Positions 14,782-27,695 of a stretch of DNA of 64,000 nt are shown in pieces. The notes beneath the pieces were generated by a model. It did no database searches. It was not told the origin of the DNA and saw nothing but the letters and a program-made list of their open reading frames with translations. The translations under genes and the position numbers were made by a program. This stretch comes from Salinivibrio sp. ES.052 (lineage in GTDB: Bacteria > Pseudomonadota > Gammaproteobacteria > Enterobacterales > Vibrionaceae), in the NCBI RefSeq assembly GCF_900141775.1, contig NZ_FSRI01000001.1, forward strand, positions 652,251-716,250, given 5' to 3'. How positions within the stretch are numbered: the stretch's first letter is position 1; each line of letters begins with the position of its first letter.

Positions 14782-15651
14782 ATGACGACGACAACAATGA
14801 ACAACCTAACCATGACTGAAGATGTAGTGAAAGCGGCACCACAAAGCACAGAAGCACCGAGCGAAACCTGTGGCATTCCGTTTGTCGATACACCCCGTAT
14901 GACGGCACGAAACGTGTTCGTTAATTATGACAACGGATCTAAGCCGGCGATTAAAAACGTGAGTCTCGATATTGGCGAGAAAGAAGTGCTCGCGATGATC
15001 GGTCCATCAGGCTGTGGCAAGTCGACCTTTTTGCGTTGCTTAAATCGTATGAATGACACTATTCCCGGCTGCGAGGTGACGGGAGATATCATTTTGGATG
15101 GTGAAGACATTCACCACCGCGACAGTGAAATCGTCGAGCTACGTTCGCAAGTTGGAATGGTGTTTCAGCGTCCTAATCCGTTCCCCAAATCGGTCTATGA
15201 CAACGTTGCCTATGGCCCGCGGATCCACGGTTTAGTCGATCATAAAGCTGACTTGGATGAGCTGGTGCAGCAATCTTTGACCCGTGCCGGGCTTTGGAAT
15301 GAGGTGAAAGATCGCCTTGATCAGCCAGCGACTGGCTTATCTGGGGGCCAGCAGCAGCGCCTATGTATCGCGCGCACCATTTCTGTCGCGCCTGAGGTTA
15401 TTTTGATGGACGAGCCATGCTCGGCACTCGATCCCATTGCGACTGGTATCATTGAAGAGCTGATTGCCGATCTGAAGAAAAACTTTAGCATTGTGATTGT
15501 CACGCACTCTATGCAGCAAGCCGCGCGAGTATCCGACCGCACTGCGTATTTTCACCTTGGCAGCTTGGTAGAGGTTAATACCACGAAAAAAATCTTTAAT
15601 GACCCTGAACACAAACTAACGTCTGACTATATCAATGGTCGTTTTGGTTAA
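14782..15651 (+). CDS. pstB: Phosphate ABC transporter ATP-binding protein
   Basis: Cytoplasmic ATPase driving phosphate uptake. Walker [10 protein letters not shown] begins near residue 74, the ABC signature LSGGQQQR near residue 186, and Walker [14 protein letters not shown] near residue 207. An N-terminal extension of about 30 residues rich in Thr/Met precedes the core. It ends the operon. No phoU follows, unlike enterobacterial pst operons; the next gene is a tRNA. Confidence 0.95.
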
Positions 15652-15741
15652 GTAGACGACGGGGTAGAGTCGGATCAAACCTATTAAAATAGAGTTTTGC
15701 TGATAATTTAAGCGCTTAAGCATGAAAAAGTAAAAAGATAC

Positions 15742-15770
15742 TTTACATCAGATTAAGCAGCCTCTACTAT
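15742..15770 (+). promoter_or_regulatory. Sigma-70 promoter for tRNA-Ser
   Basis: TTTACA (15742-15747) and TACTAT (15765-15770) are separated by exactly 17 bases, with the tRNA beginning 13 bases after the -10 element. Confidence 0.7.
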
Positions 15771-15782
15771 ACGCCCCGTTCT

Positions 15783-15873
15783 GGAGGGATGGCTGAGCGG
15801 TTGAAAGCACCGGTCTTGAAAACCGGCAAGGGTTAATAGCCCTTCTAGGGTTCAAATCCCTATCCCTCCGCCA
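15783..15873 (+). tRNA. tRNA-Ser(UGA)
   Basis: Class II tRNA with a long variable arm. The acceptor stem is GGAGGGA paired with TCCCTCC, the anticodon stem CCGGT/ACCGG encloses the loop CTTGAAA (anticodon TGA), and the T-arm is GGGTTCAAATCCC. The CCA end is encoded. It reads UCA serine codons. It borders the cassette array on the left. Confidence 0.97.
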
Positions 15874-15883
15874 AACACCGAAA

Positions 15884-15912
15884 AGCCGCTGAGAAATCAG
15901 CGGCTTTTTTCG
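15884..15912 (+). terminator. Terminator after tRNA-Ser
   Basis: AGCCGCTGA pairs with TCAGCGGCT around a GAAA-type loop, followed by a T-run. Confidence 0.85.
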
Positions 15913-16335
15913 TTCATGCCCCGCAAACACTCAAACCCTGACCTTGCCAACATTTTAGGCGCTTGTGTCTAAACAGCTATTCGGCACTCTGGTATTCTAA
16001 CCCTTTATATTTCTTCCTTTTATATGGCCTTTTGGACGCCGCTAACCGAAGGGCGGTAGCGTGGAACGCAACAAAAGCGCCCACATGGATGCACGCTTTC
16101 TCATGACCGATTCACACTTTCCCTAGGCGAAAAAATAAAAAACACGAATAATCAATCGGTTAAAAGTACAAGCGCGGGGATAATGTGAATACCTCAACCG
16201 GGATAGGCGGCATGCACACTATCACCGAAGAGAGCTTGATGAGATAGATGGAAAAACCACATGCGTATCATGAGGTTATGAATAAAACAGGGCGTATAAC
16301 GATTTTGGCAAATCGAGCACGCACACTAATACAAT
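15913..16335. other. Non-coding stretch between tRNA-Ser and the first cassette
   Basis: About 420 bases without a convincing gene. No integrase, no duplicated tRNA 3' end and no clear attC were seen. It ends at a GTTATGA (16335-16341) that matches the core of a cassette recombination site, so the left boundary of the array, possibly an eroded attI or attC, probably lies here. Confidence 0.5.
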
Positions 16336-16367
16336 GTTATGAGTTCATTCAATGAGGGAGCATAGAT

Positions 16368-16667
16368 ATGTCGAAGTCAGCACAAGAAGCATATGACGAG
16401 ATTTTGGCCCACATTAAGCAGCAGGGAGGTGCATTTTCAAAGTGGTATTGTGGCATCACTGAAAACATCAATAATCGACTCCATGGCGACCACAAGGTAC
16501 CGGAAAAGGAACATTGGTTTATACATAGAAAGTGTGTGAGCGATGAGGCCGCGCGAGCTGTTGAGAAAGCATTCTTAGAGCACGGTTGCGATGGTGGTGA
16601 TGGCGGTGGAGATAACGATGCCGTACATGTATACGCTTATCTTAAAACCTCAATCACTGAGCCGTGA
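16368..16667 (+). CDS. Small GIY-YIG-like cassette protein, function unknown
   Basis: A 99-residue protein in the first cassette. The segment FSKWYCGITENINNRLHGDH at residues 22-41 resembles the start of a degenerate GIY-YIG fold (Tyr, Gly, Thr, then Arg in a helix). The canonical GIY and YIG triplets are not intact and a catalytic Glu is uncertain, though EKAFLEHGCDGG near residues 66-77 could supply one. The C-terminal half has a Gly/Asp-rich loop. GAGGGAG precedes the ATG. Nuclease activity is not established; a DNA-binding or defence role is speculation. Confidence 0.5.
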   Translation: MSKSAQEAYDEILAHIKQQGGAFSKWYCGITENINNRLHGDHKVPEKEHWFIHRKCVSDEAARAVEKAFLEHGCDGGDGGGDNDAVHVYAYLKTSITEP

Positions 16668-16677
16668 TAGCCGCTGC

Positions 16678-16761
16678 TCATAACAAGGCCAAGCACCGCG
16701 ACGTATTTTTCGTTCCGCCTGCGGCTCCACAAAAAATACGCGCGTGTTGGCGGCGTTATGG
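16678..16761 (+). repeat. attC site 1
   Basis: TAACAAGGCCAAGCACCG and downstream bases to 16710 pair imperfectly with the strand ending GTTGGCGGCGTTA at 16758; the inner arms ACGTATTTTT and AAAAAATACG are nearly perfect. The site ends in the core GTTATGG. Length (~84 bases) and architecture are those of a cassette attC. Confidence 0.85.
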
Positions 16762-16776
16762 TGCTAAGGAGTTTCA

Positions 16777-17694
16777 GTGTCACCTATAGATGAAATGTTT
16801 AAAGAGATATTTGGTGAAGCTCCCAACAAGGCAGGAACAGCATATGAAATGCTAGCTTGCATTGCGGAACATCTGATGAGCCAAGGTGATGTGAAGCATG
16901 ATGACAAAATTAGAGGCGCATTCTCAAATTCTCTCTATCAGATTGACGTCTTGTCTGAAGATGGCTCAGACAAATCAATGGGTGAGGCAAAAGACTACAC
17001 TATTCAAAACAAGAAAGTGGGTCGAGGTGATATGCAAAAACTTGTAGGTGCGCTTCCTGATCTTCCGGATATAAACAAAGGAAAATTCTTTTCAGCAACC
17101 GGTTATACGGATCCCGCAAAGAAATATGCGGCAGCAAGCGAAAACTTCCCGTCGGGGAAGCCTATAGATATATTTGAGTTTAGGCCCAGTACCGAGCGAG
17201 ATGAAGAAGGGACTATACAAACAATCGTGATCCATATGCACTTCATTATCCCTCACCCTCAACAAGCTAAGTGGAAACCTCACCTAACAGAGGCAGGCAT
17301 TGAAGCTTGTAAAGCATTGGTTGCAGAAGGTGAAAGCGAGTATCAATACAGTCTAAATTTAGAGAAATTTTACGATTGTTCTGGGAATGAGATACTTTCT
17401 GTTCAGGAACTTACAAGTCAAAACTATGGGGAAGTAAATTCTGATACAAAGTCCGCTCACGGCTCCTTCGTTCTCAAAGACCATTACATTTATATTGATA
17501 GCGTATTAGCGGAATTGAAAGGTCTTGAGTATGAAGTTCCGCATGCTGAAGTGCATGAAACCATGGAAATAACGGATAACAGTAAGTGTCGGTTTGTTCT
17601 AAAAGATTCTAGCGGTGAAATAATACGGTTTATCACTGATGGACAAATTAAAGGCTATGGCTTTGATGCTAATGGCAATATTTTCGCACCATAA
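16777..17694 (+). CDS. PD-(D/E)XK (Mrr_cat-like) nuclease-like cassette protein
   Basis: A 305-residue protein whose N-terminal half looks like a restriction-endonuclease fold. It has a leading helix AYEMLACIAEHL, a strand YQIDVL containing Asp (about residue 55), then MGEAKDY with the Glu-x-Lys of the PD-(D/E)XK active site (residues about 69-72). A helix-rich stretch and SATGYTDPAKKYA, typical of Mrr-like domains, follow. The C-terminal ~130 residues are unfamiliar. Translation starts at GTG 16777 behind TAAGGAG. It has no methylase partner in the array. A DNA-restriction or anti-phage role is inferred from fold only. Confidence 0.65.
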   Translation: MSPIDEMFKEIFGEAPNKAGTAYEMLACIAEHLMSQGDVKHDDKIRGAFSNSLYQIDVLSEDGSDKSMGEAKDYTIQNKKVGRGDMQKLVGALPDLPDINKGKFFSATGYTDPAKKYAAASENFPSGKPIDIFEFRPSTERDEEGTIQTIVIHMHFIIPHPQQAKWKPHLTEAGIEACKALVAEGESEYQYSLNLEKFYDCSGNEILSVQELTSQNYGEVNSDTKSAHGSFVLKDHYIYIDSVLAELKGLEYEVPHAEVHETMEITDNSKCRFVLKDSSGEIIRFITDGQIKGYGFDANGNIFAP

Positions 17695-17779
17695 CAAGCC
17701 GCTCAAATTCGTTCCGGCCACAAAAAAGCGTGGCCTCCACCGGACTCGCTAGCGCTCGCCGTTTAGCGGAGCGTTATGA
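17689..17779 (+). repeat. attC site 2
   Basis: ATAACAAGCCGCT at the left pairs with AGCGGAGCGTTAT at the right. The inner CCGGCCAC and GTGGCCTCCACCGG also pair. It ends in the GTTATGA core, at which the next reading frame begins. Confidence 0.82.
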
Positions 17780-18231
17780 GGCATATGGATATTCAACTAA
17801 TACAAATAGAAAATGATGAGTTTGAAAGTCTGTTCTCTGTTGTGAAACAGGGACTTTATTCGCATGTTGATGCCGTCTTTGGCTGGTGTGATGACTTCCA
17901 AGTCAATCGTTTAAAAAATGACTACGAGCCGCATTGGTTTCACTGGGTTTATCTCAATAACACGCAAGTTGGAATGCTATGCTTCAAGCCTTACGAAAAC
18001 GCATTTCATGTACATTTACTCATTGTGTTTCCTGAATTTCAAAATCAGAAACTGGGTGAAAGGGTCATGAACATGATTCACGAAATGGCGCGTGAGCAAG
18101 GGCGTAGTTGCGTAACCTTATCAAGTTTTACTAGAAACGAGCCTGCGGTAAGGTTTTACAAATCCCTTGGCTATCAGGTGACTGAAAGCGATGAAAACTT
18201 CCTTTCTTTGACGCTTCAAGTTGCCTCATAA
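17776..18231 (+). CDS. GNAT-family N-acetyltransferase (cassette)
   Basis: A 151-residue acetyltransferase-fold protein. The acetyl-CoA-binding motif A region is LLIVFPEFQNQKLGERVMNMI (central FQNQKLGERV, about residues 84-93), and motif B is NEPAVRFYKSLGYQVTE near the end. The first ATG overlaps the attC core GTTATG; a second in-frame ATG nine bases later is an equally possible start. The stop codon lies at the very beginning of the composite repeat. The substrate is unknown; such cassettes are often resistance or detoxification genes. Confidence 0.75.
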   Translation: MRHMDIQLIQIENDEFESLFSVVKQGLYSHVDAVFGWCDDFQVNRLKNDYEPHWFHWVYLNNTQVGMLCFKPYENAFHVHLLIVFPEFQNQKLGERVMNMIHEMAREQGRSCVTLSSFTRNEPAVRFYKSLGYQVTESDENFLSLTLQVAS

Positions 18232-18422
18232 CACATATGAGCCCTTCTCCGGTCAATAGGCAATAGCATTTTTTGGCTGCGCCAGCAGCCAATGCTCTCG
18301 AACAACAAAGTCGTCTACTTCGCTCTGTCATTTCCGCCATTAAGTCATTGCTTACGGCAAACACATATAGAAGGTCTCTTACTGCGGTCTCACCGCTGCC
18401 TGCCAATCATATGACAGGGCCA

Positions 18423-18557
18423 TTAGACATTACTTCCCGTTCCCACGCAGGAGCGTGGGAACGAGTTATAGAGAATGACTTTTCCGTGGTCATCCACCGC
18501 GTGAAGAGAAAAGTGGTGCTTGGCGATATCAACGCCACAAAGTAATTGAGTAGACAT
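18423..18557 (-). pseudogene. IS110-family transposase 5' fragment, copy 1
   Basis: Reading the minus strand from the ATG at 18557 (preceded by CGGAGG) gives GVDIAKHHFSLHAVDDHGK, an excellent match to the N-terminus of IS110/IS1111-type DEDD transposases, including the first catalytic Asp. Similarity stops after about 34 residues, where the frame runs into the palindrome and ends at codon 45. Full-length transposases of this family have 300-400 residues, so this is a remnant. Copy 1 is the best preserved. Confidence 0.75.
18438..18463. repeat. REP-like palindrome in copy 1
   Basis: CGTTCCCACGC, an AGGA loop and GCGTGGGAACG: 11-bp perfect arms. It resembles the widespread proteobacterial REP-type palindromes. 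Confidence 0.85.
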
Positions 18558-18652
18558 GGTTACCTCCGGTATTAAAGGCCGCACCTAAGTGTGGCGTGTG
18601 GCAGATTTTCAAGAGGGGGAGTCCATGTCATTCGTTAGGTGAAGAGGTTCAG

Positions 18653-19339
18653 ATGTACGATACAGTGATTTTTGATTATGGAAATACCTTGTGTGAAATG
18701 GGTAGTCTTTCAGGTTCGTTGAAAGCCATTCTTAAATCGCAGCATGCTGAGAAAATTGGTGATTTGATAGAGCGAAGTATTCAAGAGCTGTATATACCCG
18801 AACAAGTGGAGCAACCAAATTGGATTGATGTATGGCAAAAGGCATTTCATGAGTACAAACTAGAATTTGACAAATCGATTGGTTTGAAACATTTGAATCA
18901 CTTTGTAGATAGCGGTCGTCTTTATCAATACTCAATCCCCCTACTTGAAGCTCTTCATAATCAGGGGACAAAACTCATATTGCTGTCTAATGTAACGGGT
19001 AGTACAGAAGTGTTTCAACGTGACTTAATAAACCGAGGACTGGCTAAATATTTCGATAGCATAATTTGGTCTTCAGAAATTGGCTATAGGAAACCTAGCC
19101 GTCAGGCTTTTGAAATTGCATTAGAAAGTGTTGGGAGTTTGGCGAAAAATAGCATTATGGTTGGGGATAGTGAAATTGCCGATATTCGTGGAGCTCAACT
19201 AGTAGGTATTTCGACAGTGCTTATCTCAGATCTTAAAAACACAGAAAGCAGGGCAAGTCACGTGGTTAATCAAGCCAATATTCTGGATCAACTAATTCGC
19301 CTAACACATATGAGCCCTTCTCCGGTCAATAGGCAATAG
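18653..19339 (+). CDS. HAD-superfamily hydrolase (cassette), C-terminus extended into repeat
   Basis: A 228-residue haloacid-dehalogenase-fold hydrolase, probably a phosphatase. Motif I FDYGNTL at residues 6-12 supplies the Asp nucleophile, motif II is LILLSN, and motifs III/IV are GYRKPSRQAFE and VGDSEIADIRGA. The start at 18653 follows GAAGAGG; an upstream in-frame start lies inside the repeat and is rejected. The last 12 residues (LTHMSPSPVNRQ) are read from the start of composite repeat copy 2, so the original stop was probably lost when the repeat joined the gene. Confidence 0.78.
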   Translation: MYDTVIFDYGNTLCEMGSLSGSLKAILKSQHAEKIGDLIERSIQELYIPEQVEQPNWIDVWQKAFHEYKLEFDKSIGLKHLNHFVDSGRLYQYSIPLLEALHNQGTKLILLSNVTGSTEVFQRDLINRGLAKYFDSIIWSSEIGYRKPSRQAFEIALESVGSLAKNSIMVGDSEIADIRGAQLVGISTVLISDLKNTESRASHVVNQANILDQLIRLTHMSPSPVNRQ

Positions 19340-19703
19340 CATTTTTTTGCTGCGCCAGCAGCCAATGCTCTCGAACAACAAAGTCGTCTACTTCGCTCTG
19401 TCATTTCCGCCATTAAGTCATTGCTTACGGCAAACTCATATAGAAGGTCTCTTACTGCGGTCTCACCGCTACTTGCCAATCATATGACAGGGCCATTAGA
19501 CATTACTTCCCGTTCTCACTCAGGAGCGTGAGAACGAGTTATGGAGAATAACTTTTCCGCGTTCACCCACTGCGTGAAGAGAACAGTGGTACTTGGCGAG
19601 ATCAACGCCACAAAAGAATTGAGTAGACATGGTTACCTCCGGTATTAAAGGCCGCACCTAAGTGTGGCAGATCTTCACGAGGTGGAATCCATGTTATTCG
19701 TTA
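19302..19703 (+). repeat. Composite attC-position repeat, copy 2 (402 bp)
   Basis: Same order of parts as copy 1: TAACACATATGAGCC start, first hairpin, palindrome (19511-19536), IS110 fragment and hairpin GCCGCAC/GTGTGGC, ending at TTCGTTA. The palindrome arms have changed on both sides (CCC to CTC and GGG to GAG), a paired change that keeps the stem, with one new mismatch elsewhere. Confidence 0.9.
19520..19630 (-). pseudogene. IS110-family transposase 5' fragment, copy 2
   Basis: From ATG 19630 the minus strand reads GVDLAKYHCSLHAVGERGK, then stops after 36 residues inside the palindrome. It retains the family Asp but has more substitutions than copy 1, as expected for independent decay. 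Confidence 0.7.
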
Positions 19704-19720
19704 TATTCACACGAGGAGAT

Positions 19721-20188
19721 ATGGAAATTTGTTGCAAAATATTGAGTTCTAAAGACAGTCATATGTATCGTGATTTGCGACTGGAAAGTCTGAAGTTGTA
19801 CCCTGAGTCCTTTGGTTCATCCTACGAAGAACAGTCACAGCTTCCTAAGTTGTTCTTTGAAAAGCTTATTGAGGAACAGTGTGAGACTCACGTGATGATC
19901 GGTGCTTTCAAAAATGGTCAACTTGTTGGTTTATGTGGCTTAATTCCTACCGGTAGTGGTGATTCTTTAGAAGTGGTTCAAATGTATGTGTCAACGAGTA
20001 CTCGTGGACAATCAGTAGGGCAACAGCTGTTGTCTAAAGCTTGCTCAATTTTAAGCTCGAGGCGAGAAGGCAAGCTAGAACTAACGGTTTACGTTAACAA
20101 TGATGCTGCTATCGCCTCATACGAGAAGTTTGGCTTTAAACAGGTGTCTAAGATAGACCAAGAAATTGTCATGAATTTTGAGCCATGA
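19721..20188 (+). CDS. GNAT-family N-acetyltransferase (cassette)
   Basis: A 155-residue acetyltransferase. The typical GNAT N-terminus MYRDLRLESLKLYPESFGSS resembles RimI-like proteins. Motif A is VVQMYVSTSTRGQSVGQQLL (residues ~88-107), and motif B is ELTVYVNNDAAIASYEKFGF. The start at 19721 follows CGAGGAGAT and lies just after the repeat boundary; an upstream in-frame ATG lies inside the repeat and is rejected. Substrate unknown. Confidence 0.8.
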   Translation: MEICCKILSSKDSHMYRDLRLESLKLYPESFGSSYEEQSQLPKLFFEKLIEEQCETHVMIGAFKNGQLVGLCGLIPTGSGDSLEVVQMYVSTSTRGQSVGQQLLSKACSILSSRREGKLELTVYVNNDAAIASYEKFGFKQVSKIDQEIVMNFEP

Positions 20189-20287
20189 ACATAAAAAACG
20201 ATTTAAATCTGATTTGCATACGCGCGCCACTTTCGCTTAGCTCCAATTTTGGTACACGTTCACTCACAGTTTAAGCGTGCGTTATGT
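20187..20287 (+). repeat. attC site (less perfect)
   Basis: CATAAAAAACGATTTAAA at the left end pairs with TTTAAGCGTGCGTTATG at the right (outer CATAA, ACG and TTTAAA segments match). It ends in a GTTATGT core; the central part has only weak structure. Confidence 0.6.
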
Positions 20288-20300
20288 GCTTAGAGGGAAA

Positions 20301-20735
20301 ATGGCATTGATTAGAGAAATGGATATCTCAGATTACTCTCAAGTTATTGAGTTATGGTCTGAAACAGAAGTTATGTTGCTGCGTGATGCAGACTCTAGAG
20401 AAAACATAGGCAAATACTTAGAACGTAACCCCAATCTCAGCTTTGTCGCTGTAGATGGTGACACTATTGTAGGTGCAATTTTAGTGGGTACAGACGGTCG
20501 TCGAGGTTACGTGCAACATTTGGCTGTAAACCCGAATTGTCGAGGTAAAGGAATTGGTGTCAAACTAATATCTTCAGCGGTCGATGCATTATCTAAAATT
20601 GGTATAGCTAAAACTCACTTATTTGTCGCCAATGAAAACCTGAATGCTCAATATTTCTATGAGAAACTAGGTTGGTTTCCACGTGATGAAGTGCGTATGT
20701 TTTCCTTTAACTCGTCTTGCAGTGGTAATGTTTAG
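20301..20735 (+). CDS. GNAT-family N-acetyltransferase (cassette)
   Basis: A 144-residue acetyltransferase with the full set of motifs. The N-terminus is IREMDISDYSQVIELW, motif A VQHLAVNPNCRGKGIGVKLI lies around residues 73-92 with the R-G-K-G-I-G acetyl-CoA loop, and motif B is FVANENLNAQYFYEKLGW. The start at 20301 follows AGAGGG; an earlier in-frame ATG overlaps the attC core. It is closest in pattern to single-domain YpeA/RimI-like proteins; the target is unknown. Confidence 0.82.
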   Translation: MALIREMDISDYSQVIELWSETEVMLLRDADSRENIGKYLERNPNLSFVAVDGDTIVGAILVGTDGRRGYVQHLAVNPNCRGKGIGVKLISSAVDALSKIGIAKTHLFVANENLNAQYFYEKLGWFPRDEVRMFSFNSSCSGNV

Positions 20736-20740
20736 TACGC

Positions 20741-20867
20741 ATATAACAATAAAATTTAAGGGTGATTCACAACGCTAGGCACTCTCGCTTCAAGCAAGTT
20801 TAGTGTTTATGGCACAATGCTTTAGGCAGGTGGTTAGCGTTGTTCGCATCTTAATTTGGCGTTATGG
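20741..20867 (+). repeat. Long Vibrio-type attC site
   Basis: About 127 bases, the length of Vibrio VCR-type sites. ATAACAATAAAATTTAAG and CACAACGCT on the left pair with AGCGTTGTTCGCATCTTAAT and TTGGCGTTAT on the right. It ends in the GTTATGG core. Confidence 0.82.
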
Positions 20868-20897
20868 CGCAGGGCAAAATTTAGCTAAGGGAACTAG

Positions 20898-21380
20898 ATG
20901 AGTGATAAAGTTAAAGTAGTTTTGCAGTGGCTCAAAGAGATCTTGGATGCAGAGGTTGTGGAGTATCAAATAGTAGGTGGATTAGCAGCAACAATTCATG
21001 GTGGAAGTCGGGAAATTGCAGATGTAGATCTTTATATTCGAAACTCAGACGCAGACAAAGTTCTATCGCATGTAGCAAAATACATATCCAAACCGTTAAC
21101 TCATTATGCCGAATATGGTTGGGATCTAGAGTATTTCCAATTGGTTTACCAAAATCAAAAAATTGAAATCGGTTTGTCTGAAAATACTAAGATACAATCA
21201 TGTCAAGATGGCTCTTGGTACCAGTTTGAAATTTACTTCTCAGAATCAGTTATTAAAGATTATCAAGGTATCGAGTTGCCAGTTATCCCAGTACATCGTT
21301 TAGTCGAGTACAAGCGGATATTGGGCAGGGAAGTAGACCAAATTGACATACAAGAGCTAACGTTGAGTGGAACGCCATAA
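20898..21380 (+). CDS. Nucleotidyltransferase-fold protein (cassette)
   Basis: A 160-residue protein with the minimal nucleotidyltransferase (pol-beta) signature. IVGGLAATIHGGSREIADVD at residues 22-41 includes the GG start, His and paired Asp of a DVD metal site, and a later strand (IEIGL) could supply a third acidic residue. The tail VHRLVEYKRILGREVDQIDI is typical of stand-alone transferases of the lincosamide-resistance/AbiEii-like type. AAGGGAAC precedes the ATG. Its stop codon is made by the first bases of composite repeat copy 3. A toxin, resistance or tRNA-modifying role cannot be told apart from sequence. Confidence 0.7.
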   Translation: MSDKVKVVLQWLKEILDAEVVEYQIVGGLAATIHGGSREIADVDLYIRNSDADKVLSHVAKYISKPLTHYAEYGWDLEYFQLVYQNQKIEIGLSENTKIQSCQDGSWYQFEIYFSESVIKDYQGIELPVIPVHRLVEYKRILGREVDQIDIQELTLSGTP

Positions 21381-21780
21381 CACATATGAGCCCTTCTCCG
21401 GTCAATAGGCGATAGCATTTTTTTGGTTGCGCCAGCAGCCAATGCTCTCGAGCAACAAAGTCGTCTACTTCGTTCTGTCAGTTCCGCCATTAAGTCATTG
21501 CTTACGGCAAACACATATAGAAGATCTCTTACTGCGGTCACACCGCTGCCAGCCAACCCTGTGACAGGGCCATTAGACATTACTTCCCGTTCCCACGCAG
21601 GAGCGTGAGAACGAGTTATGGAGAATGACTTTTCCGTGGTCATCCACCGCGTGAAGAGAAAAGTGATGCTTGGCGAGAACAACGCTGAAAAAGAACTGAG
21701 TAGACATGGTTACTTGCGGAGCTAAAGGCCGCACCTAAGTGTGGCAGATCTTCACGAGGTGGAATCCATGTTATTCGTTA
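21378..21780 (+). repeat. Composite attC-position repeat, copy 3 (403 bp)
   Basis: Same structure as copies 1 and 2. The palindrome (21588-21613) is intermediate between them: left arm as in copy 1 (CCC), right arm as in copy 2 (GAG), leaving one unpaired position. It ends at TTCGTTA followed by divergent sequence. Confidence 0.9.
21573..21707 (-). pseudogene. IS110-family transposase 5' fragment, copy 3
   Basis: From ATG 21707 the minus strand reads SVVLAKHHFSLHAVDDHGK. The first catalytic Asp of the DEDD set has become Val, and the ribosome binding site upstream has decayed. It ends in the same place as copy 1 (44 residues). Confidence 0.72.
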
Positions 21781-21816
21781 GTTTGCTACAAAGAATCGCG
21801 AAGTATTAAGGAACAT

Positions 21817-22350
21817 ATGAAAGTAGATATAAGACCAGCCAAGGAAGACGAACTGGAATTCCTCCATTCTTTGGTTGTTTCAAACGATGAATGGACAAAG
21901 TTTAATGGCCCTTACTTTCCTTACTCACATCCATCACTAGAACAGTTTGAGAAATCTTCATTTCAAAGATTATTAAATGGTTCAGACTTACGGTTAGTCA
22001 CTGTAGATGATGTACCTGTTGGGACAGTGAATTGTTACTGGGAATGTGAAGAAACTCGCTGGCTTGAAGCTGGTATTATCATCTATGATTCAGCATATTG
22101 GGGGAAGGGTATCGCAGCACGAGCCATTCCTCTCTGGGTTTCGTACTTATTTAATACTAAAGAAATTGAGCGTGTTGGTATGACAACCTGGTCGGGTAAC
22201 CCTCGCATGATGTCGCTAGCATTGAAATTAGGTTTCCAACAAGAAGCTAGATTGCGGAAAGTTCGTTACTACGAGGGCAAGTACTACGATTCAGTTAAAT
22301 ATGGGATGCTGCGTTCGGAGTGGTTAGAACGCAACTGGCAAAGTTTTTAA
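21817..22350 (+). CDS. RimJ/RimL-type GNAT acetyltransferase (cassette)
   Basis: A 177-residue acetyltransferase of the RimJ/RimL type. The motif A region is IIIYDSAYWGKGIAARAIPL (about residues 88-107), followed by the signature IERVGMTTWSGNPRMMSLAL and KLGFQQEARLRKVRYYEGKY. The start at 21817 follows AAGGA; longer in-frame starts lie in composite repeat copy 3. Members acetylate N-termini of ribosomal proteins or small molecules; which one is not evident. Confidence 0.82.
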   Translation: MKVDIRPAKEDELEFLHSLVVSNDEWTKFNGPYFPYSHPSLEQFEKSSFQRLLNGSDLRLVTVDDVPVGTVNCYWECEETRWLEAGIIIYDSAYWGKGIAARAIPLWVSYLFNTKEIERVGMTTWSGNPRMMSLALKLGFQQEARLRKVRYYEGKYYDSVKYGMLRSEWLERNWQSF

Positions 22351-22479
22351 GAGAAATCTTCAGCGCCTGGCATTTTCAGTTTTAATCAGCTTTGGTACTT
22401 ACGTACAGTGGATTAGCTAAGGGATAAGCGTTGTTCACACCTTAATTTGGCTCACTTTATTGGAATATTGAACGTTATG
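22348..22479 (+). repeat. Eroded attC site
   Basis: The right arm AGCGTTGTTCACACCTTAAT is almost the same as that of the Vibrio-type site at 20741, but the core GTTATG that should follow TTGGC is replaced by TCACTT. A GTTATGG occurs 30 bases later at the next gene start. The left arm is weak. Probably inactive. Confidence 0.5.
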
Positions 22480-23076
22480 GATGATACTTCAGCAACTTGG
22501 CGTCAGTACTACGAAAAATCATTGTTACGCCCCCACAATTCACGCACTGAACTCGCCATTGAGTTGGATCAGTCTGGACTGAAAACCGCTGTTGATTGCG
22601 GTTGTGGAACCGGAAGTGAGATAGCGTATCTAGAGCAGCAAGGCTATCGGGTGTATGGCTTTGATATTAATCCAGACTCTATTGCGATATGTTCAGAAAG
22701 GTTTAGTTCAAAGCCGCTGGTTAAACTTTCAGAGTGCTCATTTGAGTCTTTCAATTATCCTTCTACTGGCATAGTGATAGCAAACTCAAGTTTGTTCTTT
22801 GCTGATCCGATAGAGTTTAAAAATACATGGCGAAAACTTGCTTCTTCTATCGCGGTTGGTGGTGTTTTTGTAGGTGATTTTATGGGGCCTAGAGATACTT
22901 GGGCAACGAATTTTCGGTTACCGACGGCTCCGTTGAGTAAAGAACAAGTTGAGCTCTTATTTGAAGAGTTTGAAATAGTCAGTTTCAAAGAACGTGATGA
23001 GCCTGGCGCGACAATGGTTGGAGCCCCTAAGCATTGGCATATTTTTTCAGTGATTGCTGTAAAACGTACATCATAA
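22477..23076 (+). CDS. Class I SAM-dependent methyltransferase (cassette)
   Basis: A 199-residue methyltransferase. Motif I AVDCGCGTGSEIAYL lies near residues 36-50, and the acidic residue binding the SAM ribose is in VYGFDINPDSIAI. NSSLFFADPIEFKNTW marks the post-motif region. The start at 22477 lies within a GTTATGG core-like sequence and gives a better N-terminus than the upstream in-frame ATG at 22447, which is within the eroded attC. The resemblance is to TehB-like small-molecule methyltransferases; the substrate is unknown. Confidence 0.75.
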   Translation: MDDTSATWRQYYEKSLLRPHNSRTELAIELDQSGLKTAVDCGCGTGSEIAYLEQQGYRVYGFDINPDSIAICSERFSSKPLVKLSECSFESFNYPSTGIVIANSSLFFADPIEFKNTWRKLASSIAVGGVFVGDFMGPRDTWATNFRLPTAPLSKEQVELLFEEFEIVSFKERDEPGATMVGAPKHWHIFSVIAVKRTS

Positions 23077-23272
23077 TATGGTCATGTGATATACAACATT
23101 AGTAATGTAAGCTTTTTTATTAGATTGTAATGCTGGGCATTTTTCTTGTGCGTTGGCATTAGTGATAGATATAAAAAAGTATACGGTTTCTTTACTATTG
23201 CGTTTCTCCTTTTTCCACAGAGAAGAATGGTAACGAGCCCCACATTACTTTCAAGTACAAGGGAAAGAGTTT

Positions 23273-24025
23273 TTGAAGCAGAGTAGAAGTGAGTTTTGGT
23301 CAGGTGAGGAATACGATGCCCAGTATGGTAATTACTATTCGGATGAAATATCGTTCTTTCAGGATTTAATGCTTCATCGAAATATCTTATCCCTACTAGA
23401 TGTCTGCTGCGGGACTGGCCTAGCAACAATTCCATTATCAAAGAAGTTATCTCATGCAGTAGGTATTGATTTTTCTCGTTCAATGGTTGATTTTGCGAAG
23501 TCTAAGTCATCAAATATTAGTAATGTCACGTTTTATGAAAAGGATGCCGTAAGTTTCGACTTAAAAAGCGTCTTTGATCTGATTATTATGACGGGAAATG
23601 CCTTTCAAGCATTTCTTTCAGATACAGACCTTCCATCCATGCTCGAAAATGTAAAAAAACACATGCACGGAAATAGTTTTTTTGTATTTGATTGTCGACT
23701 TCCATGTCCTAAGTACTTTGAAAAAACACATAATTACGAATATTGGTCTTCCTACACGAGTTACAGCGGAGAAAACGTCGATGTATATGGTTTGGACAGC
23801 AGGCACCCAACATTAAGTAATACGATGTTGCATCGTGTAAGAAGAGAATATGAAAATGGTATGCAATATCAAAGCTATATCGAGCTGAAATATCGTTCAA
23901 TTGACGAGATAGGCGATCGCCTTGAGCAACACGGTCTGCAGTTAGTAGAACGTTACGCAGATTGGAAAAAGACGACTTTGACTGAATCATCGACAAGCTT
24001 TGTGGGGGTTGTTAGGCCGCTATAA
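23273..24025 (+). CDS. Class I SAM-dependent methyltransferase
   Basis: A 250-residue protein with motif I LLDVCCGTGLATIPL (about residues 40-54), VGIDFSRSMVDFA for the SAM ribose contact, and DLIIMTGNAFQAF as motif IV. The C-terminal half is the beta-rich substrate region typical of small-molecule methyltransferases. Translation probably starts at TTG 23273 behind AAGGGAAAGAG; no ATG lies near a ribosome binding site. It is AT-rich like the cassette genes. No attC separates it from the preceding methyltransferase, so the two may belong to one cassette or to a decayed end of the array. Confidence 0.72.
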   Translation: MKQSRSEFWSGEEYDAQYGNYYSDEISFFQDLMLHRNILSLLDVCCGTGLATIPLSKKLSHAVGIDFSRSMVDFAKSKSSNISNVTFYEKDAVSFDLKSVFDLIIMTGNAFQAFLSDTDLPSMLENVKKHMHGNSFFVFDCRLPCPKYFEKTHNYEYWSSYTSYSGENVDVYGLDSRHPTLSNTMLHRVRREYENGMQYQSYIELKYRSIDEIGDRLEQHGLQLVERYADWKKTTLTESSTSFVGVVRPL

Positions 24026-24100
24026 CGAGATCATTGAGATCTCGCTGGACTTGTTCCTTTTCTTCAAAAGGTAGCTTTAGGCTGATTGAAGTTGATGGTT

Positions 24101-24240
24101 ACGATGTCATCCACCACTTGAGCACAGACTGGCGTATAGAAAGTGCAACGCCAAAAATAGTGATATGTCTCACCTCGAGATGCAAAGCCTCATCTTAATA
24201 TGACAGCGTTGTAAGAGGGGGATTCATGCCATTTTTATGC
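24101..24240 (+). repeat. Decayed fourth copy of the IS110/composite-repeat right end
   Basis: GTCATCCACCAC (24106), then GGCGTATA...CAACGCC, TATGTCTCACCTC, and AAGAGGGGGATTCATGCCATT (first 20 shown to 24232) follow the order and spacing of the right half of the composite repeats, with many substitutions. On the minus strand one frame reads VVDDIVTIN where the intact copies have AVDDHGKVIL. It suggests a former cassette boundary just before the gene at 24264. Confidence 0.45.
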
Positions 24241-24263
24241 AATAAGGCAAGGAAATCAAATAG

Positions 24264-24518
24264 ATGCAATACCTAGAGGTAAATGTCAAGACAGCGATTA
24301 TCGTTCACGGTTATGACGAGAATCATAAAGAAATTACAGAAACAGTGAATGAGGAGCAGTACGTCACAAAGCTCGTTGCGATCGAGAGGCTGCAGTCTGT
24401 TAGTGAGCAATATCTTTTAGTGACTGGATCGCACGGTCGTATGATGTACTGGGAATATGACGAGTCAATCGACAGCATCCGTCAAAAACTGGAAAAAGTA
24501 GGTGTACGCGTCGCGTAG
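24264..24518 (+). CDS. Small hypothetical protein (84 aa)
   Basis: A short acidic protein not recognised as a known family. It alternates beta-like segments (VKTAIIVHGY, QYLLVTGSHGRMMYWEY) with a C-terminal helix IDSIRQKLEKVGV, suggesting a small alpha/beta fold. AAGGAAATC precedes the ATG. It lies right after a decayed composite repeat and may be a former cassette gene. Real but uncharacterised. Confidence 0.55.
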   Translation: MQYLEVNVKTAIIVHGYDENHKEITETVNEEQYVTKLVAIERLQSVSEQYLLVTGSHGRMMYWEYDESIDSIRQKLEKVGVRVA

Positions 24519-24530
24519 CAAACATCAGGA

Positions 24531-24556
24531 GCTAGCACCGACTCTCGTGTGCTAGC
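24531..24556. repeat. Inverted repeat between two small genes
   Basis: GCTAGCAC (24531-24538) and GTGCTAGC (24549-24556) form an 8-bp perfect stem around a 10-base loop. There is no T-run, so terminator function is doubtful. Confidence 0.5.
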
Positions 24557-24582
24557 ATCTGTAGGTAGGTGGAGTCTAGCTT

Positions 24583-24789
24583 ATGTCACTTTATGACAAA
24601 CAGAAGCATATAAAGAATCAGGAAGATACAATGTTAGTTGCTTCGGATTCTTGGTTGACAGTTAAATTTTCCCAAGAAGCAGCAAAGTCTTGGAAACGTA
24701 TTCTATTGCTATTCGTTCTTGCAATTCTATGTTTGTTTGCACCAGCATTGGGTTTGATTATATCAACCATAAATGCATTTTTTTCGTAA
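24583..24789 (+). CDS. Small single-pass membrane protein (68 aa)
   Basis: The first 40 residues are polar and the last 25 form one strong membrane helix (ILLLFVLAILCLFAPALGLII). GGTGGAG lies upstream of the ATG. No family is recognised. It could be a small accessory membrane protein; short length and isolated position keep confidence low. Confidence 0.45.
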   Translation: MSLYDKQKHIKNQEDTMLVASDSWLTVKFSQEAAKSWKRILLLFVLAILCLFAPALGLIISTINAFFS

Positions 24790-24978
24790 ACAACTAGTGA
24801 GTCGCGGGTTCAACTGCGAAGTGCCCATGAAATACCCACGGTTTTTGATGGTTACAGTGTCTGTAAAAGCGATGGTATGAGAATTTTAGAAACACTTAGG
24901 GGTAATTAACGTAGAAGTTAAAACAGATAAGACAAGTATCCATGTTGGTAGGGGAAAAACTATTCACAAGAGAACATA

Positions 24979-25491
24979 ATGCATACAATAAATATCCAGT
25001 ATTATAAACATCCTTATGCCGAATTTATCCTTGGCTCTTATCAAGGTAAGCTTTGCTTGTGTGACTTCCGATATCGCAAGATGAGAAGGGCCGTTGATGA
25101 GCGCATTAAACGGATTCTTAACGCTGAGTTTGTAGAAAAAAGCGATGATGTTTTGGCCGCTACTCGCGTTCAGCTCGAGGAATATTTTTTGGGTGAGCGA
25201 CAAGTTTTCGATTTGCCTTTACTTTTGGCGGGTACCGATTTTCAACAGTCGGTATGGAATGCATTAAGCAACATTCAGTACGGTGACAGGGCGACGTACC
25301 AAGAGCTGGCAGTATCGATTGGTAATGAAGCCGCAGTGCGCGCGGTTGGCAATGCTAATGGAGCAAATGCGTTGGCGATTATCATTCCTTGTCATAGGGT
25401 TATCGGCACCCAAGGGGAGCTTGTTGGCTATGGTGGCGGTTTGTCACTGAAAAAGCGCCTTTTAGAATTAGAGCAGAACTTATTCATTTAA
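24979..25491 (+). CDS. ogt: Methylated-DNA--protein-cysteine methyltransferase (Ogt-type)
   Basis: Suicide DNA-repair enzyme that removes alkyl groups from O6-alkylguanine onto its own Cys. The active-site motif IIPCHRVIG is at about residues 134-142, preceded by YQELAVSIGNEAAVRAVGNA, the helix-turn-helix that binds DNA. QSVWNALSNIQYGDRATY is also characteristic. At 170 residues it matches the single-domain Ogt/MGMT length, without the Ada regulatory domain. It starts a small run of same-strand genes. Confidence 0.92.
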   Translation: MHTINIQYYKHPYAEFILGSYQGKLCLCDFRYRKMRRAVDERIKRILNAEFVEKSDDVLAATRVQLEEYFLGERQVFDLPLLLAGTDFQQSVWNALSNIQYGDRATYQELAVSIGNEAAVRAVGNANGANALAIIIPCHRVIGTQGELVGYGGGLSLKKRLLELEQNLFI

Positions 25492-25508
25492 GGATAGAGT
25501 AGGGGCGT

Positions 25509-25727
25509 ATGAGAGCGGAACTGAGAGCAAAAATCTTGGCAGTATGTGATCAAAAAATCAAAGCGAAAGGCGAGAATGTCGGCGTGTCATTTTATGCGTT
25601 CTTCAAAAACAAAAATGACGATCCGGAGCAATTGATGGAAACCGCAACCTGGTGGATACAGACCCATCAGTTAGATCATTTTGTTAAGGCAAGAACCATC
25701 AAAGAGATGGTGGAAAATAATTTATGA
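25509..25727 (+). CDS. Small DUF6500-like protein
   Basis: A 72-residue protein, mostly helical, with FYAFFKNKNDDPEQLMETATWWIQTHQLDHF in the centre (key residues F29, W47, W48). It resembles a small family of unknown function (DUF6500) by memory of this pattern; I am not certain. It starts 18 bases after ogt and may be co-transcribed with it. Confidence 0.55.
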   Translation: MRAELRAKILAVCDQKIKAKGENVGVSFYAFFKNKNDDPEQLMETATWWIQTHQLDHFVKARTIKEMVENNL

Positions 25728-25785
25728 CAGCGTTATCGCGGCAGGGCGACTGCCTCCCACACTGCGTTTCAATAATTAAGGAAAT

Positions 25786-26208
25786 ATGTCAATGGCTTAT
25801 TCTCAAGCAAGCTGCCTATGCGGTGCAGTAAAAATCACCGCCGAAAATGTAAACCCCAACTTCACAGTTTGTCACTGCCAATCATGTCGCGGCTGGGGTG
25901 GTGCGCCATTTTTTGCGGTGAAGTGTGGAACACAAGTCACCTTTGAGGGTGATGAAAAGATAAAAATGTACCCATCATCGTCGTGGGCGTCACGTGGTTT
26001 TTGTACTGAGTGTGGCACGCATTTGTTTTATAAATTCAAAGAAACTGGTGAGTACAATATGCCAGTAGGCTTGTTCCCTGATCTTGAAGGCCTAGAAATG
26101 GAGATGCAGTATTTCAGTGACATGCGCCCCAGTTACTATTGCTTTTCCAACCAAACGAAGGAAATGACTACTGCAGAAATCATGGCCTATTTTGCCGACA
26201 AGGTGTAA
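25786..26208 (+). CDS. GFA (glutathione-dependent formaldehyde-activating)-family protein
   Basis: A 140-residue zinc-binding beta-tent protein. The ligand set is complete: CLCGAV near residue 10-15, CHCQSC near 34-39, and CTECGTHLF near 72-80. Proteins of this family either join glutathione to formaldehyde or handle other small thiol-reactive compounds; most are uncharacterised. AAGGA lies upstream of the first ATG; an ATG two codons later is an alternative. Confidence 0.85.
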   Translation: MSMAYSQASCLCGAVKITAENVNPNFTVCHCQSCRGWGGAPFFAVKCGTQVTFEGDEKIKMYPSSSWASRGFCTECGTHLFYKFKETGEYNMPVGLFPDLEGLEMEMQYFSDMRPSYYCFSNQTKEMTTAEIMAYFADKV

Positions 26209-26342
26209 CTCAGGTTCACAAGGATGGCAGTGGGTAGCGAGGCACTGGCCCAGACAGCCGGACTGGCTTGGGCACACGGATGTTAGAAATCCCGCGACGG
26301 TTGAGGTAGCATTGCCGACTTTTTCAGCGGTGAGAGGCATTT

Positions 26343-27695
26343 ATGTATATCGGCTTTGACTATGGTACAGCCAATTGTTCGGTGGCGAAAATTGAAAACG
26401 GTCAGCCGACGCTGTTACGTCTGGAAGGGGATAGCACGTTTATTCCTTCCTCCCTTGCCGCACCTACGCGCGAATCGGTGTCTGAGTATCTGTTTCGTCA
26501 TCGGGGCATCAAGCCGCTAGATACGATTGGCGAGCAGGTGTTGCGCCGCGCTATCCATGTAAACCGAGAGGAAAGCATTGAACTTGAGGCGGAGGACATG
26601 GCGTTTGGTCAAGCGGCGCTCGATCGCTATCTCGATGATCCGCGCGATATGTACTACGTGAAATCGCCTAAATCTTTCCTTGGCGCGTCAGGTTTACGTG
26701 ATGCCCAACTGCGCTTTTTTGAGGACCTAGTATGCGCAATGATGGACAACATCAAAACGCAAGCCGAACACCAAACCCAACAGAGTATTCATGATGCGGT
26801 GATCGGTCGGCCTATCAACTTTCAAGGCCGTGGAGGCGAGACGGCAAACCGCCAAGCCGAAGGTATTTTGCTCAATGCGGCTAAGCGGGCAGGCTTTAAA
26901 CAGATTGAATTTCAGTTTGAGCCAGTCGCTGCCGGCTTAGATTATGAAGCGACACTGAGCGAAGACCAAATTGTTCTGGTGGTCGATATCGGTGGGGGAA
27001 CCACAGACTGTTCGTTGATTGAGATGGGACCATCATGGCGCGGTAGTCGCGATCGCAGTGCAAGTTTATTAGCGCATAAAGGCCAGCGTATTGGCGGCAA
27101 TGACTTAGATATTGCGTTGGCATTCAAACAAATGATGTTCCCGTTTGGGATGGGCAGCAAAATGGAATCTGGCATTGAGATGCCGATTACGCAGTTTTCC
27201 AACCCTATCGCGATTAACAACGTGCAAGCACAAAACGATTTCTATGCGTTTGAAAATTTGGCTGTGCTCAAAGGGCTGCACAAGCAAGCGCAAGAGCCAC
27301 ATAAACTGGCCCGTTTGCTTGAGGTCTATTACGAATCACTGGGGCACAACATTGTCCGTCGTGCGGAAGAGGCAAAGATCGCGTTGTCGGATCAAGCCGC
27401 TTACCGAGCGGGTATTAAGCTGTTCTCAGAGCGTGTGGACGTTGATATATCGCGCGATAACATGATTGATGCGATTGAGGCGCCCAAACGTAAGATGGTC
27501 GCCTTAGTTCACGATGTGGTCGCTCAGGCTGGTGTAAAGCCTGACGTGATTTTTATGACAGGTGGCTCGGCACGCTCGCCCTTCTTGCGGGAAGCTGTAC
27601 AAGCAGAGTTACCGAACATACCTGTGGTGAGTGGCGACTACTTTGGCTCAGTCACCGCAGGCTTAGCGCGTTGGGCGGAAGTTTGCTTTAAGTAA
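26343..27695 (+). CDS. yegD: YegD-like Hsp70-family chaperone
   Basis: A 450-residue actin-fold ATPase of the YegD subgroup. The phosphate-1 motif IGFDYGTANCSVA is at residues 3-15, phosphate-2 VVDIGGGTTDCSLI near 217-230, and the adenosine motif IFMTGGSARSPFLREAV near 402-418. The DnaK-type substrate-binding lid is absent, as in YegD. GAGAGGC lies before the ATG. The cellular role of YegD is poorly defined. Confidence 0.9.
   Translation: MYIGFDYGTANCSVAKIENGQPTLLRLEGDSTFIPSSLAAPTRESVSEYLFRHRGIKPLDTIGEQVLRRAIHVNREESIELEAEDMAFGQAALDRYLDDPRDMYYVKSPKSFLGASGLRDAQLRFFEDLVCAMMDNIKTQAEHQTQQSIHDAVIGRPINFQGRGGETANRQAEGILLNAAKRAGFKQIEFQFEPVAAGLDYEATLSEDQIVLVVDIGGGTTDCSLIEMGPSWRGSRDRSASLLAHKGQRIGGNDLDIALAFKQMMFPFGMGSKMESGIEMPITQFSNPIAINNVQAQNDFYAFENLAVLKGLHKQAQEPHKLARLLEVYYESLGHNIVRRAEEAKIALSDQAAYRAGIKLFSERVDVDISRDNMIDAIEAPKRKMVALVHDVVAQAGVKPDVIFMTGGSARSPFLREAVQAELPNIPVVSGDYFGSVTAGLARWAEVCFK

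What the first reader, a model, noticed from the sequence alone, without database searches (positions are those of the whole stretch)
18229..21780. Three ~403-bp composite repeats sitting in the attC position, carrying an IS110 transposase 5' fragment
Each copy starts right at the end of a cassette gene and ends at a cassette core (CGTTA), where sequences diverge. Each holds a minus-strand fragment starting with the DEDD-transposase N-terminus (GVDIAKHHFSLHAV), plus two strong hairpins. IS110/IS1111-family elements that target attC are known (IS1111-attC). Here a truncated element seems fixed inside the attC and travels with cassettes, or acts as a non-autonomous attC-targeting element. That would be an unusual type of mobile unit.
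Basis: partly seen in the sequence, partly recalled or inferred. Interest (0 to 1): 0.8.

Follow-up and report, generated by a model that had tools for sequence, protein, structure and literature searches.

The report
Fused remnants of two cassette-targeting elements
Three 400-base repeats between mobile gene cassettes of a salt-loving marine bacterium look like the fused ends of two different RNA-guided jumping elements that invaded the two ends of one cassette recombination site and then collapsed together, replacing the site and leaving repeats through which neighbouring cassettes can be swapped.

Summary
In detail: three copies (18229-18637, 19302-19703, 21378-21780) run exactly from the TAAC after one cassette gene to the GTTA before the next. 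The reading needs correcting. The unit is not one truncated IS110 element. It is the right end of one IS1111-type element (IS-B, entering attC at its 5' side) fused, across a REP-like palindrome, to the left end and about 30 transposase codons of another (IS-A, entering at the 3' side). The attC between them is gone. Intact precursors exist: three Grimontia hollisae attC sites each carry full IS-B, attC core and full IS-A. If only deletions act, such fusions arose at least four times, in Salinivibrio, Enterovibrio and Photobacterium. The window's type was found as 11 full copies in 5 of 8 Salinivibrio genomes. Copies are mosaics, so homologous recombination explains the spread best. The unit does not fold like an attC, its ends are unmatched, and in its own genome searches found only fragments of IS-A transposase, no IS-B transposase and only a broken integron integrase. 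Best reading: a dead attC acting as a recombination substrate; a new variant of a known kind.

The parts
18229..18637 (.). Fused unit, copy 1 (between a GNAT gene and a HAD-family gene)
19302..19703 (.). Fused unit, copy 2 (between the HAD-family gene and a second GNAT gene)
21378..21780 (.). Fused unit, copy 3 (between a nucleotidyltransferase-like gene and GNAT4)
18233..18437 (-). Copy 1: right end of IS-B with the end-proximal part of its non-coding (seekRNA-type) region
   Evidence: matches full-length IS-B in sister genomes; conserved fold
18438..18463 (.). Copy 1: REP-like palindrome at the joint (copy 2: 19511-19536; copy 3: 21588-21613)
   Evidence: the same palindrome occurs alone elsewhere in the genus
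18464..18633 (-). Copy 1: left end of IS-A with the first ~30 codons of its transposase (start codon at 18557, minus strand)
18229..18232 (+). Copy 1: remaining outer half of attC R'' (TAAC)
18634..18637 (+). Copy 1: remaining outer half of attC R' (GTTA)
16681..16758 (+). Ordinary attC of the same cluster (comparison)
17692..17776 (+). Ordinary attC of the same cluster (comparison)
20744..20864 (+). Ordinary attC of the same cluster (comparison)

Best explanation
Each unit is the relic of an attC that was hit twice. IS-B, an IS1111-type element, entered next to the TAAC at the 5' side of attC (R''). IS-A, a second IS1111-type element, entered between GGC and GTTA at the 3' side (R'), in the same orientation. 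A deletion then removed IS-B's transposase gene, the attC core, and IS-A's non-coding region and most of its transposase, leaving [IS-B right end - REP palindrome - IS-A left end] between the outer attC half-sites. The two parents and the intact double insertion are shown; the deletion step is inferred. The fused unit no longer folds as an attC and carries one unmatched end of each IS, so it should be invisible to the integron integrase and to either transposase (inferred). It spread over cassette junctions, and can still exchange flanking cassettes, by homologous recombination among fused units and IS-B or IS-A ends lying in the arrays. Recombination inside copies is shown; that it accounts for the whole spread is inferred.
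For: Two parents with their own transposases, each matching one half of the unit. Intact double insertions, full IS-B - about 110 bp of attC - full IS-A, in three attCs of Grimontia hollisae, and a decayed one with about 90 bp of attC in L119. Fusions with other joints: an IS-A left end lies within 900 bp of an IS-B right end in the right orientation in 12 of 50 instances, 0 of 50 in the reverse orientation; four fusions (L065, L103, L104, L154) each keep sequence that the other three lack. Recombination: the three copies next to GNAT4 have three different left genes and share exclusive bases at 11 columns, all in the right half; copy 2 is a three-part mosaic, and a PHI-type test gave 1 of 2000 permutations as low as observed. 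Units do not pair their half-sites. Own genome: no PF01548 match, only short N-terminal IS-A pieces, no IS-B protein match, integron integrase only as pieces with a stop.
Against: No same-locus pair (same two genes with attC in one genome and with a double insertion or fused unit in another) was found. Two HAD-family cassettes of the own genome, only 76% identical over the stretch holding gene and unit, both carry a unit, which could also mean that units travel with cassettes. All flanks are cassette boundaries, so recombination and targeted insertion look alike at the edges. Searching with an IS-B end hides fusions that lost that end. Breakpoints come from BLAST alignments to Salinivibrio references and may be a little too short. 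The empty IS-B protein search had no positive control in the same call.
Confidence: 0.72

Rival explanations
1. The fused unit is a chimeric non-autonomous element (left end of IS-A, right end and guide-RNA region of IS-B) mobilised in trans by a transposase of either kind and placed across the base of the attC hairpin, so that the hairpin is swapped out.
For: The window's fusion sits at 11 cassette junctions and another fusion type at two junctions of Enterovibrio sp. JCM 19048. The IS-B end keeps a conserved fold, and 8 of the 11 units keep the 9-base guide match.
Against: The outer ends are not inverted repeats of each other. No empty target TAAC|GTTA was seen. The own genome shows no complete transposase of either kind. 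Other fusions keep as little as 58 bp of the IS-B end (L177). The copies are recombinant mosaics.
Confidence: 0.08
2. The unit is a long but working attC: cassettes carrying it are still moved by an integron integrase.
For: The outer half-sites TAAC/GTTA are kept. The GNAT2 cassette right of copy 2 recurs in G002 behind an ordinary attC with exact cassette boundaries (window 19699-20296). Two diverged HAD cassettes both carry a unit.
Against: Half-site pairing at most 0.09 against 0.60-0.99 in three good attCs. In the GNAT4 copies the unit stays with the right-hand gene and the left gene changes, the opposite of what moving [gene + attC] gives. The GNAT2 insertion could predate the IS hits.
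Confidence: 0.08
3. The unit is a simple internal deletion (MITE-like) of a single IS110/IS1111 element.
For: One end with the transposase N-terminus clearly belongs to one IS.
Against: IS-A's own right end (GGGGGAATCCATGTA) is missing from the unit. The other end is that of IS-B, a different IS with its own transposase and the other side of attC as target.
Confidence: 0.03

Closest known systems
IS1111-type elements that target attC (IS1111-attC group; ISKpn4, ISPst6, ISPa25 as described in PMC11187229; Post and Hall 2009 and Tetu and Holmes 2008 seen only as references)
   Same: IS-A and IS-B enter attC at a fixed place and orientation, have subterminal inverted repeats, a DEDD transposase and a downstream non-coding region with guide-like matches.
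   Different: Here two different elements use opposite ends of the same attC, occur together in one attC, and survive as fused end-pairs that replaced the attC.
MITEs / internally deleted insertion sequences
   Same: Short, multicopy, no complete transposase, IS ends kept.
   Different: The two ends come from two different IS and are not inverted repeats of each other.
CALIN (cassette clusters lacking an integrase gene)
   Same: The window cluster has attCs and cassette genes, and none of the seven own-genome integrase-profile matches lies in the window.
   Different: Three of its junctions are fused IS units instead of attCs.

Membership tests
IS1111 family (IS-A, full copies in sister genomes) | Subterminal inverted repeats of about 11-13 bp with extensions of 7 bp (left) and 3 bp (right) | tested here: met
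   GAATGAC-ATGGATTCCCCC ... GGGGGAATCCAT-GTA; six copies aligned, one variant base in the left repeat of L072 (criteria from PMC11187229 section 4)
IS1111 family (IS-A, full copies in sister genomes) | DEDD transposase with C-terminal Transposase_20 domain and a long non-coding region downstream | tested here: met
   PF01548 and PF02371; about 250 bp between stop codon and right end
IS1111 family (IS-B, full copies in sister genomes) | Subterminal inverted repeats with 7/3-bp extensions | tested here: inconclusive
   TGAGCCTTCTCC against GGAGAAGGGCTCA, alike but for one inserted base; the exact insertion point, so the extension lengths, could not be fixed
IS1111 family (IS-B, full copies in sister genomes) | DEDD transposase with Transposase_20 and downstream non-coding region | tested here: met
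   PF01548 and PF02371; 434 bp of non-coding region downstream
IS1111-attC group (IS-A, IS-B) | Insertion in attC at a fixed position and orientation | tested here: met
   All six aligned IS-A copies have TAAC on the left, five of six GCC on the right, with an attC body following in at least three; the three aligned IS-B copies have TAAC beside the right end and attC body beside the left end
IS1111 family (the fused unit itself) | Matched subterminal inverted repeats at both ends and a complete transposase | tested here: not met
   Ends come from two IS; about 30 codons of transposase are left
MITE of an IS | Both ends from one autonomous element that can mobilise it | tested here: not met
   Left part matches IS-B, right part IS-A
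attC site | Outer half-sites TAAC / GTTA | tested here: met
   All 11 units start with TAAC; 10 of 11 end with GTTA, the G002 copy with GTTG
attC site | Bottom strand folds so that the half-sites pair | tested here: not met
   P at most 0.09 in the three window units against 0.60-0.99 (bases 3-7) in three attCs
attC site | Recombined by an integron integrase | not testable with these tools
   Needs an assay

The most novel reading that the evidence does not exclude
The fused unit is a living chimera: a minimal RNA-guided element made of one IS1111's left end and another's right end and guide RNA. Transposases supplied in trans move it onto folded attC sites, where it replaces the hairpin. That would explain why fusions keep arising and why three fusion types occur at more than one cassette junction.
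Probability: 0.08. Interest if true: 0.85.

Novelty: new variant of a known kind. Interest (0 to 1): 0.5.

Why it matters
It gives a concrete route by which attC sites die and cassette arrays freeze: two RNA-guided insertion sequences attack opposite ends of one attC and the site collapses. It also leaves long dispersed repeats by which cassettes can be exchanged without the integrase. Intact double insertions in Grimontia and fusions in three further genera make the pathway testable. Annotation that looks only for attC sites or for whole IS would miss these junctions.

Tried and rejected
A single truncated IS110: rejected, because the two halves match two different full-length elements. A working long attC: not supported by folding; the unit is 3-5 times longer than the attCs compared, and no length-matched control was folded. 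Rfam at gathering thresholds gave only the tRNA in 15500-27000. One attC consensus pattern found nothing in the window, and a first attC script with too strict a pairing rule printed nothing; a relaxed rule found three on the + strand and none on the - strand. Guide search: eight comparisons were made (four junctions, two strands each); two stood out (14 and 19 of 2000 shuffles), the other six did not, and no correction was applied. Plasmid records: 16 of 72,556 matched, two of them covering at least 80% of the unit (S. proteolyticus, S. kushneri); not followed further. Family-wide search: 50 of 329 genomes and 7 of 13 genera match at E <= 1e-20, but at most two candidates per genome were scored, so this is a lower bound. 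Fusions L062 3345-3674 and 4314-4532 were not counted as origins because they could be shortened forms of the window type; L105, L172, L174 and L177 were not used for the minimum of four either. Eight paper searches gave no listing whose title or abstract describes fused or paired attC-targeting IS; lists were cut at 4-25 rows and many subscription papers are not held. Of PMC11187229 I read sections 4 and 13, half of section 5 and found passages; of PMC11208160, PMC9229058 and PMC12444791 only found passages.
Full report
What is there. Window 16.6 to about 23 kb is a small cluster of gene cassettes near a tRNA-Ser gene (15783-15873), with three good attC sites (16681-16758, 17692-17776, 20744-20864). 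None of the seven own-genome matches to the integron-integrase profile lies in the window. Three junctions, instead of an attC, hold a unit of 409, 402 and 403 bp (18229-18637, 19302-19703, 21378-21780). Each starts with the TAAC right after a cassette gene and ends with the GTTA before the next. The genome has five full copies, two copies of the left part ending at the palindrome, and one decayed right part; five more matches are the palindrome alone.

Two parents. In sister genomes the right part of the unit (235-409) is the left end of a full-length element, IS-A. Six copies were aligned. They run GAATGAC-ATGGATTCCCCC ... GGGGGAATCCAT-GTA (one variant base in L072), with TAAC on the left in six of six and GCC on the right in five of six (GCT in L057a). 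That is an IS1111 layout: 12-bp subterminal repeats with 7- and 3-bp extensions (criteria from PMC11187229, section 4). On the top strand of the array it lies between GGC and GTTA, the 3' side (R') of attC; in at least three of the six an attC body follows the right end. The left part of the unit (1-204) is the right end of another element, IS-B; three copies were aligned, two near full length and one with a large internal deletion. IS-B has its own 347-aa transposase, subterminal repeats TGAGCCTTCTCC and GGAGAAGGGCTCA (alike but for one inserted base), TAAC beside its right end and attC body beside its left end, so it sits at the 5' side (R''). Both proteins carry PF01548 and PF02371. The unit therefore has one end of each, with a REP-like palindrome at the joint; that palindrome also occurs alone at many places in the genus.

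Precursors. In Grimontia hollisae CIP 101886 three attC sites with different flanks (L165, L178, L182) each carry, in order, a full IS-B (open frame of 369 codons, stop to stop), about 110 bp of attC body and a full IS-A (349 codons), ending in CATGTCATTCGTTA. A decayed double with about 90 bp of attC body is in L119. Deleting the middle of such a double gives the window's kind of unit; the REP palindrome at the joint is extra.

Recurrence. An exact scan for IS-B's outer 22 bases in one genome per species gave 41 stretches, all from records named Salinivibrio, Enterovibrio, Grimontia, Photobacterium or Vibrio (records very near the window's genome may be left out there). They hold 50 such ends at up to two mismatches, 44 with at least 900 bp held downstream. 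In 12 of 50 an IS-A left end follows within 900 bp in the right orientation, in 0 of 50 in the reverse orientation. Together with L065 there are four fusions that cannot derive from one another by deletion: L065 keeps IS-A to base 470 but IS-B only to 215; L104 keeps IS-B to 264 and IS-A to 397; L103 keeps IS-B to 302 but IS-A only to 250; L154 keeps IS-B 1-175 and 450-529 and IS-A to 272. So there were at least four origins, in Salinivibrio, Enterovibrio and Photobacterium, if only deletions act and the BLAST ends are right. Searching with an IS-B end biases what is seen: fusions that lost that end are missed.

Spread and recombination. The window's fusion type was found as 11 full copies in 5 of 8 Salinivibrio genomes (5 in the own genome, 3 in G004, 1 each in G002, G003, G006; none full in G001, G005, G007). 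Left-hand genes all differ, though two are diverged HAD-family relatives. Right-hand genes differ except that copy 3 and the copies of G002 and G003 share GNAT4. Those three share, in pairs or all together, bases found in no other copy at 11 columns, all at columns 293-407 and none further left. Copy 2 has 4 differences in 209 from copy 1 on the left, 0 in 154 from an S. proteolyticus copy in the middle, and 0 in 39 from copy 3 at the right end. A PHI-type test on 29 informative sites gave 1 of 2000 permutations as low as observed. So crossovers or gene conversions happen inside the units. Any crossover between two units, or between a unit and an IS-B or IS-A end, would join a new left gene to a new right gene with the break appearing exactly at TAAC or GTTA, as is seen. 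Against this being the whole story: two HAD cassettes 76% identical over gene and unit both carry a unit, and no same-locus pair was found.

attC or moving element? With DNA parameters, the bottom strands of three good attCs pair their half-sites (bases 3-7) with probabilities of 0.60-0.99, and a decayed attC at 20186-20287 reaches about 0.5 over its first six bases; the three units reach at most 0.09. The unit is 3-5 times longer than those attCs, so this is strong but not final. The own genome has no PF01548 match and no match to the IS-B protein (without a positive control in that call); the IS-A protein finds only short N-terminal pieces, five in the units and one in the decayed copy. The integron integrase appears only as two pieces with a stop at C6:1295718-1296192, 3.4 kb from a full unit; three of eight genomes have one over the curated cut-off.

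RNA. The IS-B end keeps a predicted fold across 19 sequences, including window units and other fusions: 97.0% of cells paired and 7 pairs with changes on both sides, against a shuffled mean of 3.0 (0 of 500 shuffles as high). Such shuffles ignore relatedness and the structure was predicted from the same alignment, so this is moderate support. IS-B's non-coding region contains ATATGTGTT, identical to the junction of its right end and flank (19 of 2000 shuffles as long); IS-A's contains CTAACGAAT, identical to its left junction (14 of 2000); six further comparisons gave nothing. These look like guide matches of seekRNAs (PMC11187229). Of the 11 units 8 keep the IS-B match; copy 2 and one G004 copy have one changed base and the G003 copy lost it. 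It is thus not strictly kept.

Comparison. That IS1111-type elements enter attC is known (Post and Hall 2009 and Tetu and Holmes 2008, seen only as references; stated in passages of PMC9229058). [quoted passage not shown] None of the listings of eight searches pointed to two such elements at opposite ends of one attC, or to their fusion. I therefore rate it a new variant of a known kind.

Shown: the two parents, the intact doubles, several distinct fusions, recombination inside the units. Inferred: the deletion step itself, that recombination explains all of the spread, and that the unit is dead for integrase and transposase.

Noticed in passing
own genome C6:1295718-1296192 (in L145): Integron integrase in two pieces with a stop, close to one full unit and one left-part copy: the likely home integron of the genome is without an intact integrase.
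   Followed up: partly
L068, L071 against the window units: In left-part copies a REP-like palindrome follows the same IS-B position (after AGACATTA) as in the window type, but with the loop in the other orientation; either repeated REP insertion at one spot or inversion of the palindrome.
   Followed up: no
window 24186-24245: A decayed stretch resembling an IS-A left end (GTAAGAGGGGGATTCATGCCATTTTTATG); judged by eye only.
   Followed up: no
window 20186-20287 and 22350-22465: Two decayed attC-like junctions; the first still folds partly, the second lacks a proper GTTA end.
   Followed up: partly
L147, L149, L150, L157, L159, L162 and others: Only about the last 90 bp of the IS-B right end matches, in Enterovibrio, Photobacterium, Grimontia and Vibrio; perhaps other IS that share this end, or more fusions with unknown partners.
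   Followed up: no
L145 5893-6962 and window 18633-19704: Two HAD-family cassettes, 76% identical over gene and unit, both carry a fused unit in the same genome.
   Followed up: partly
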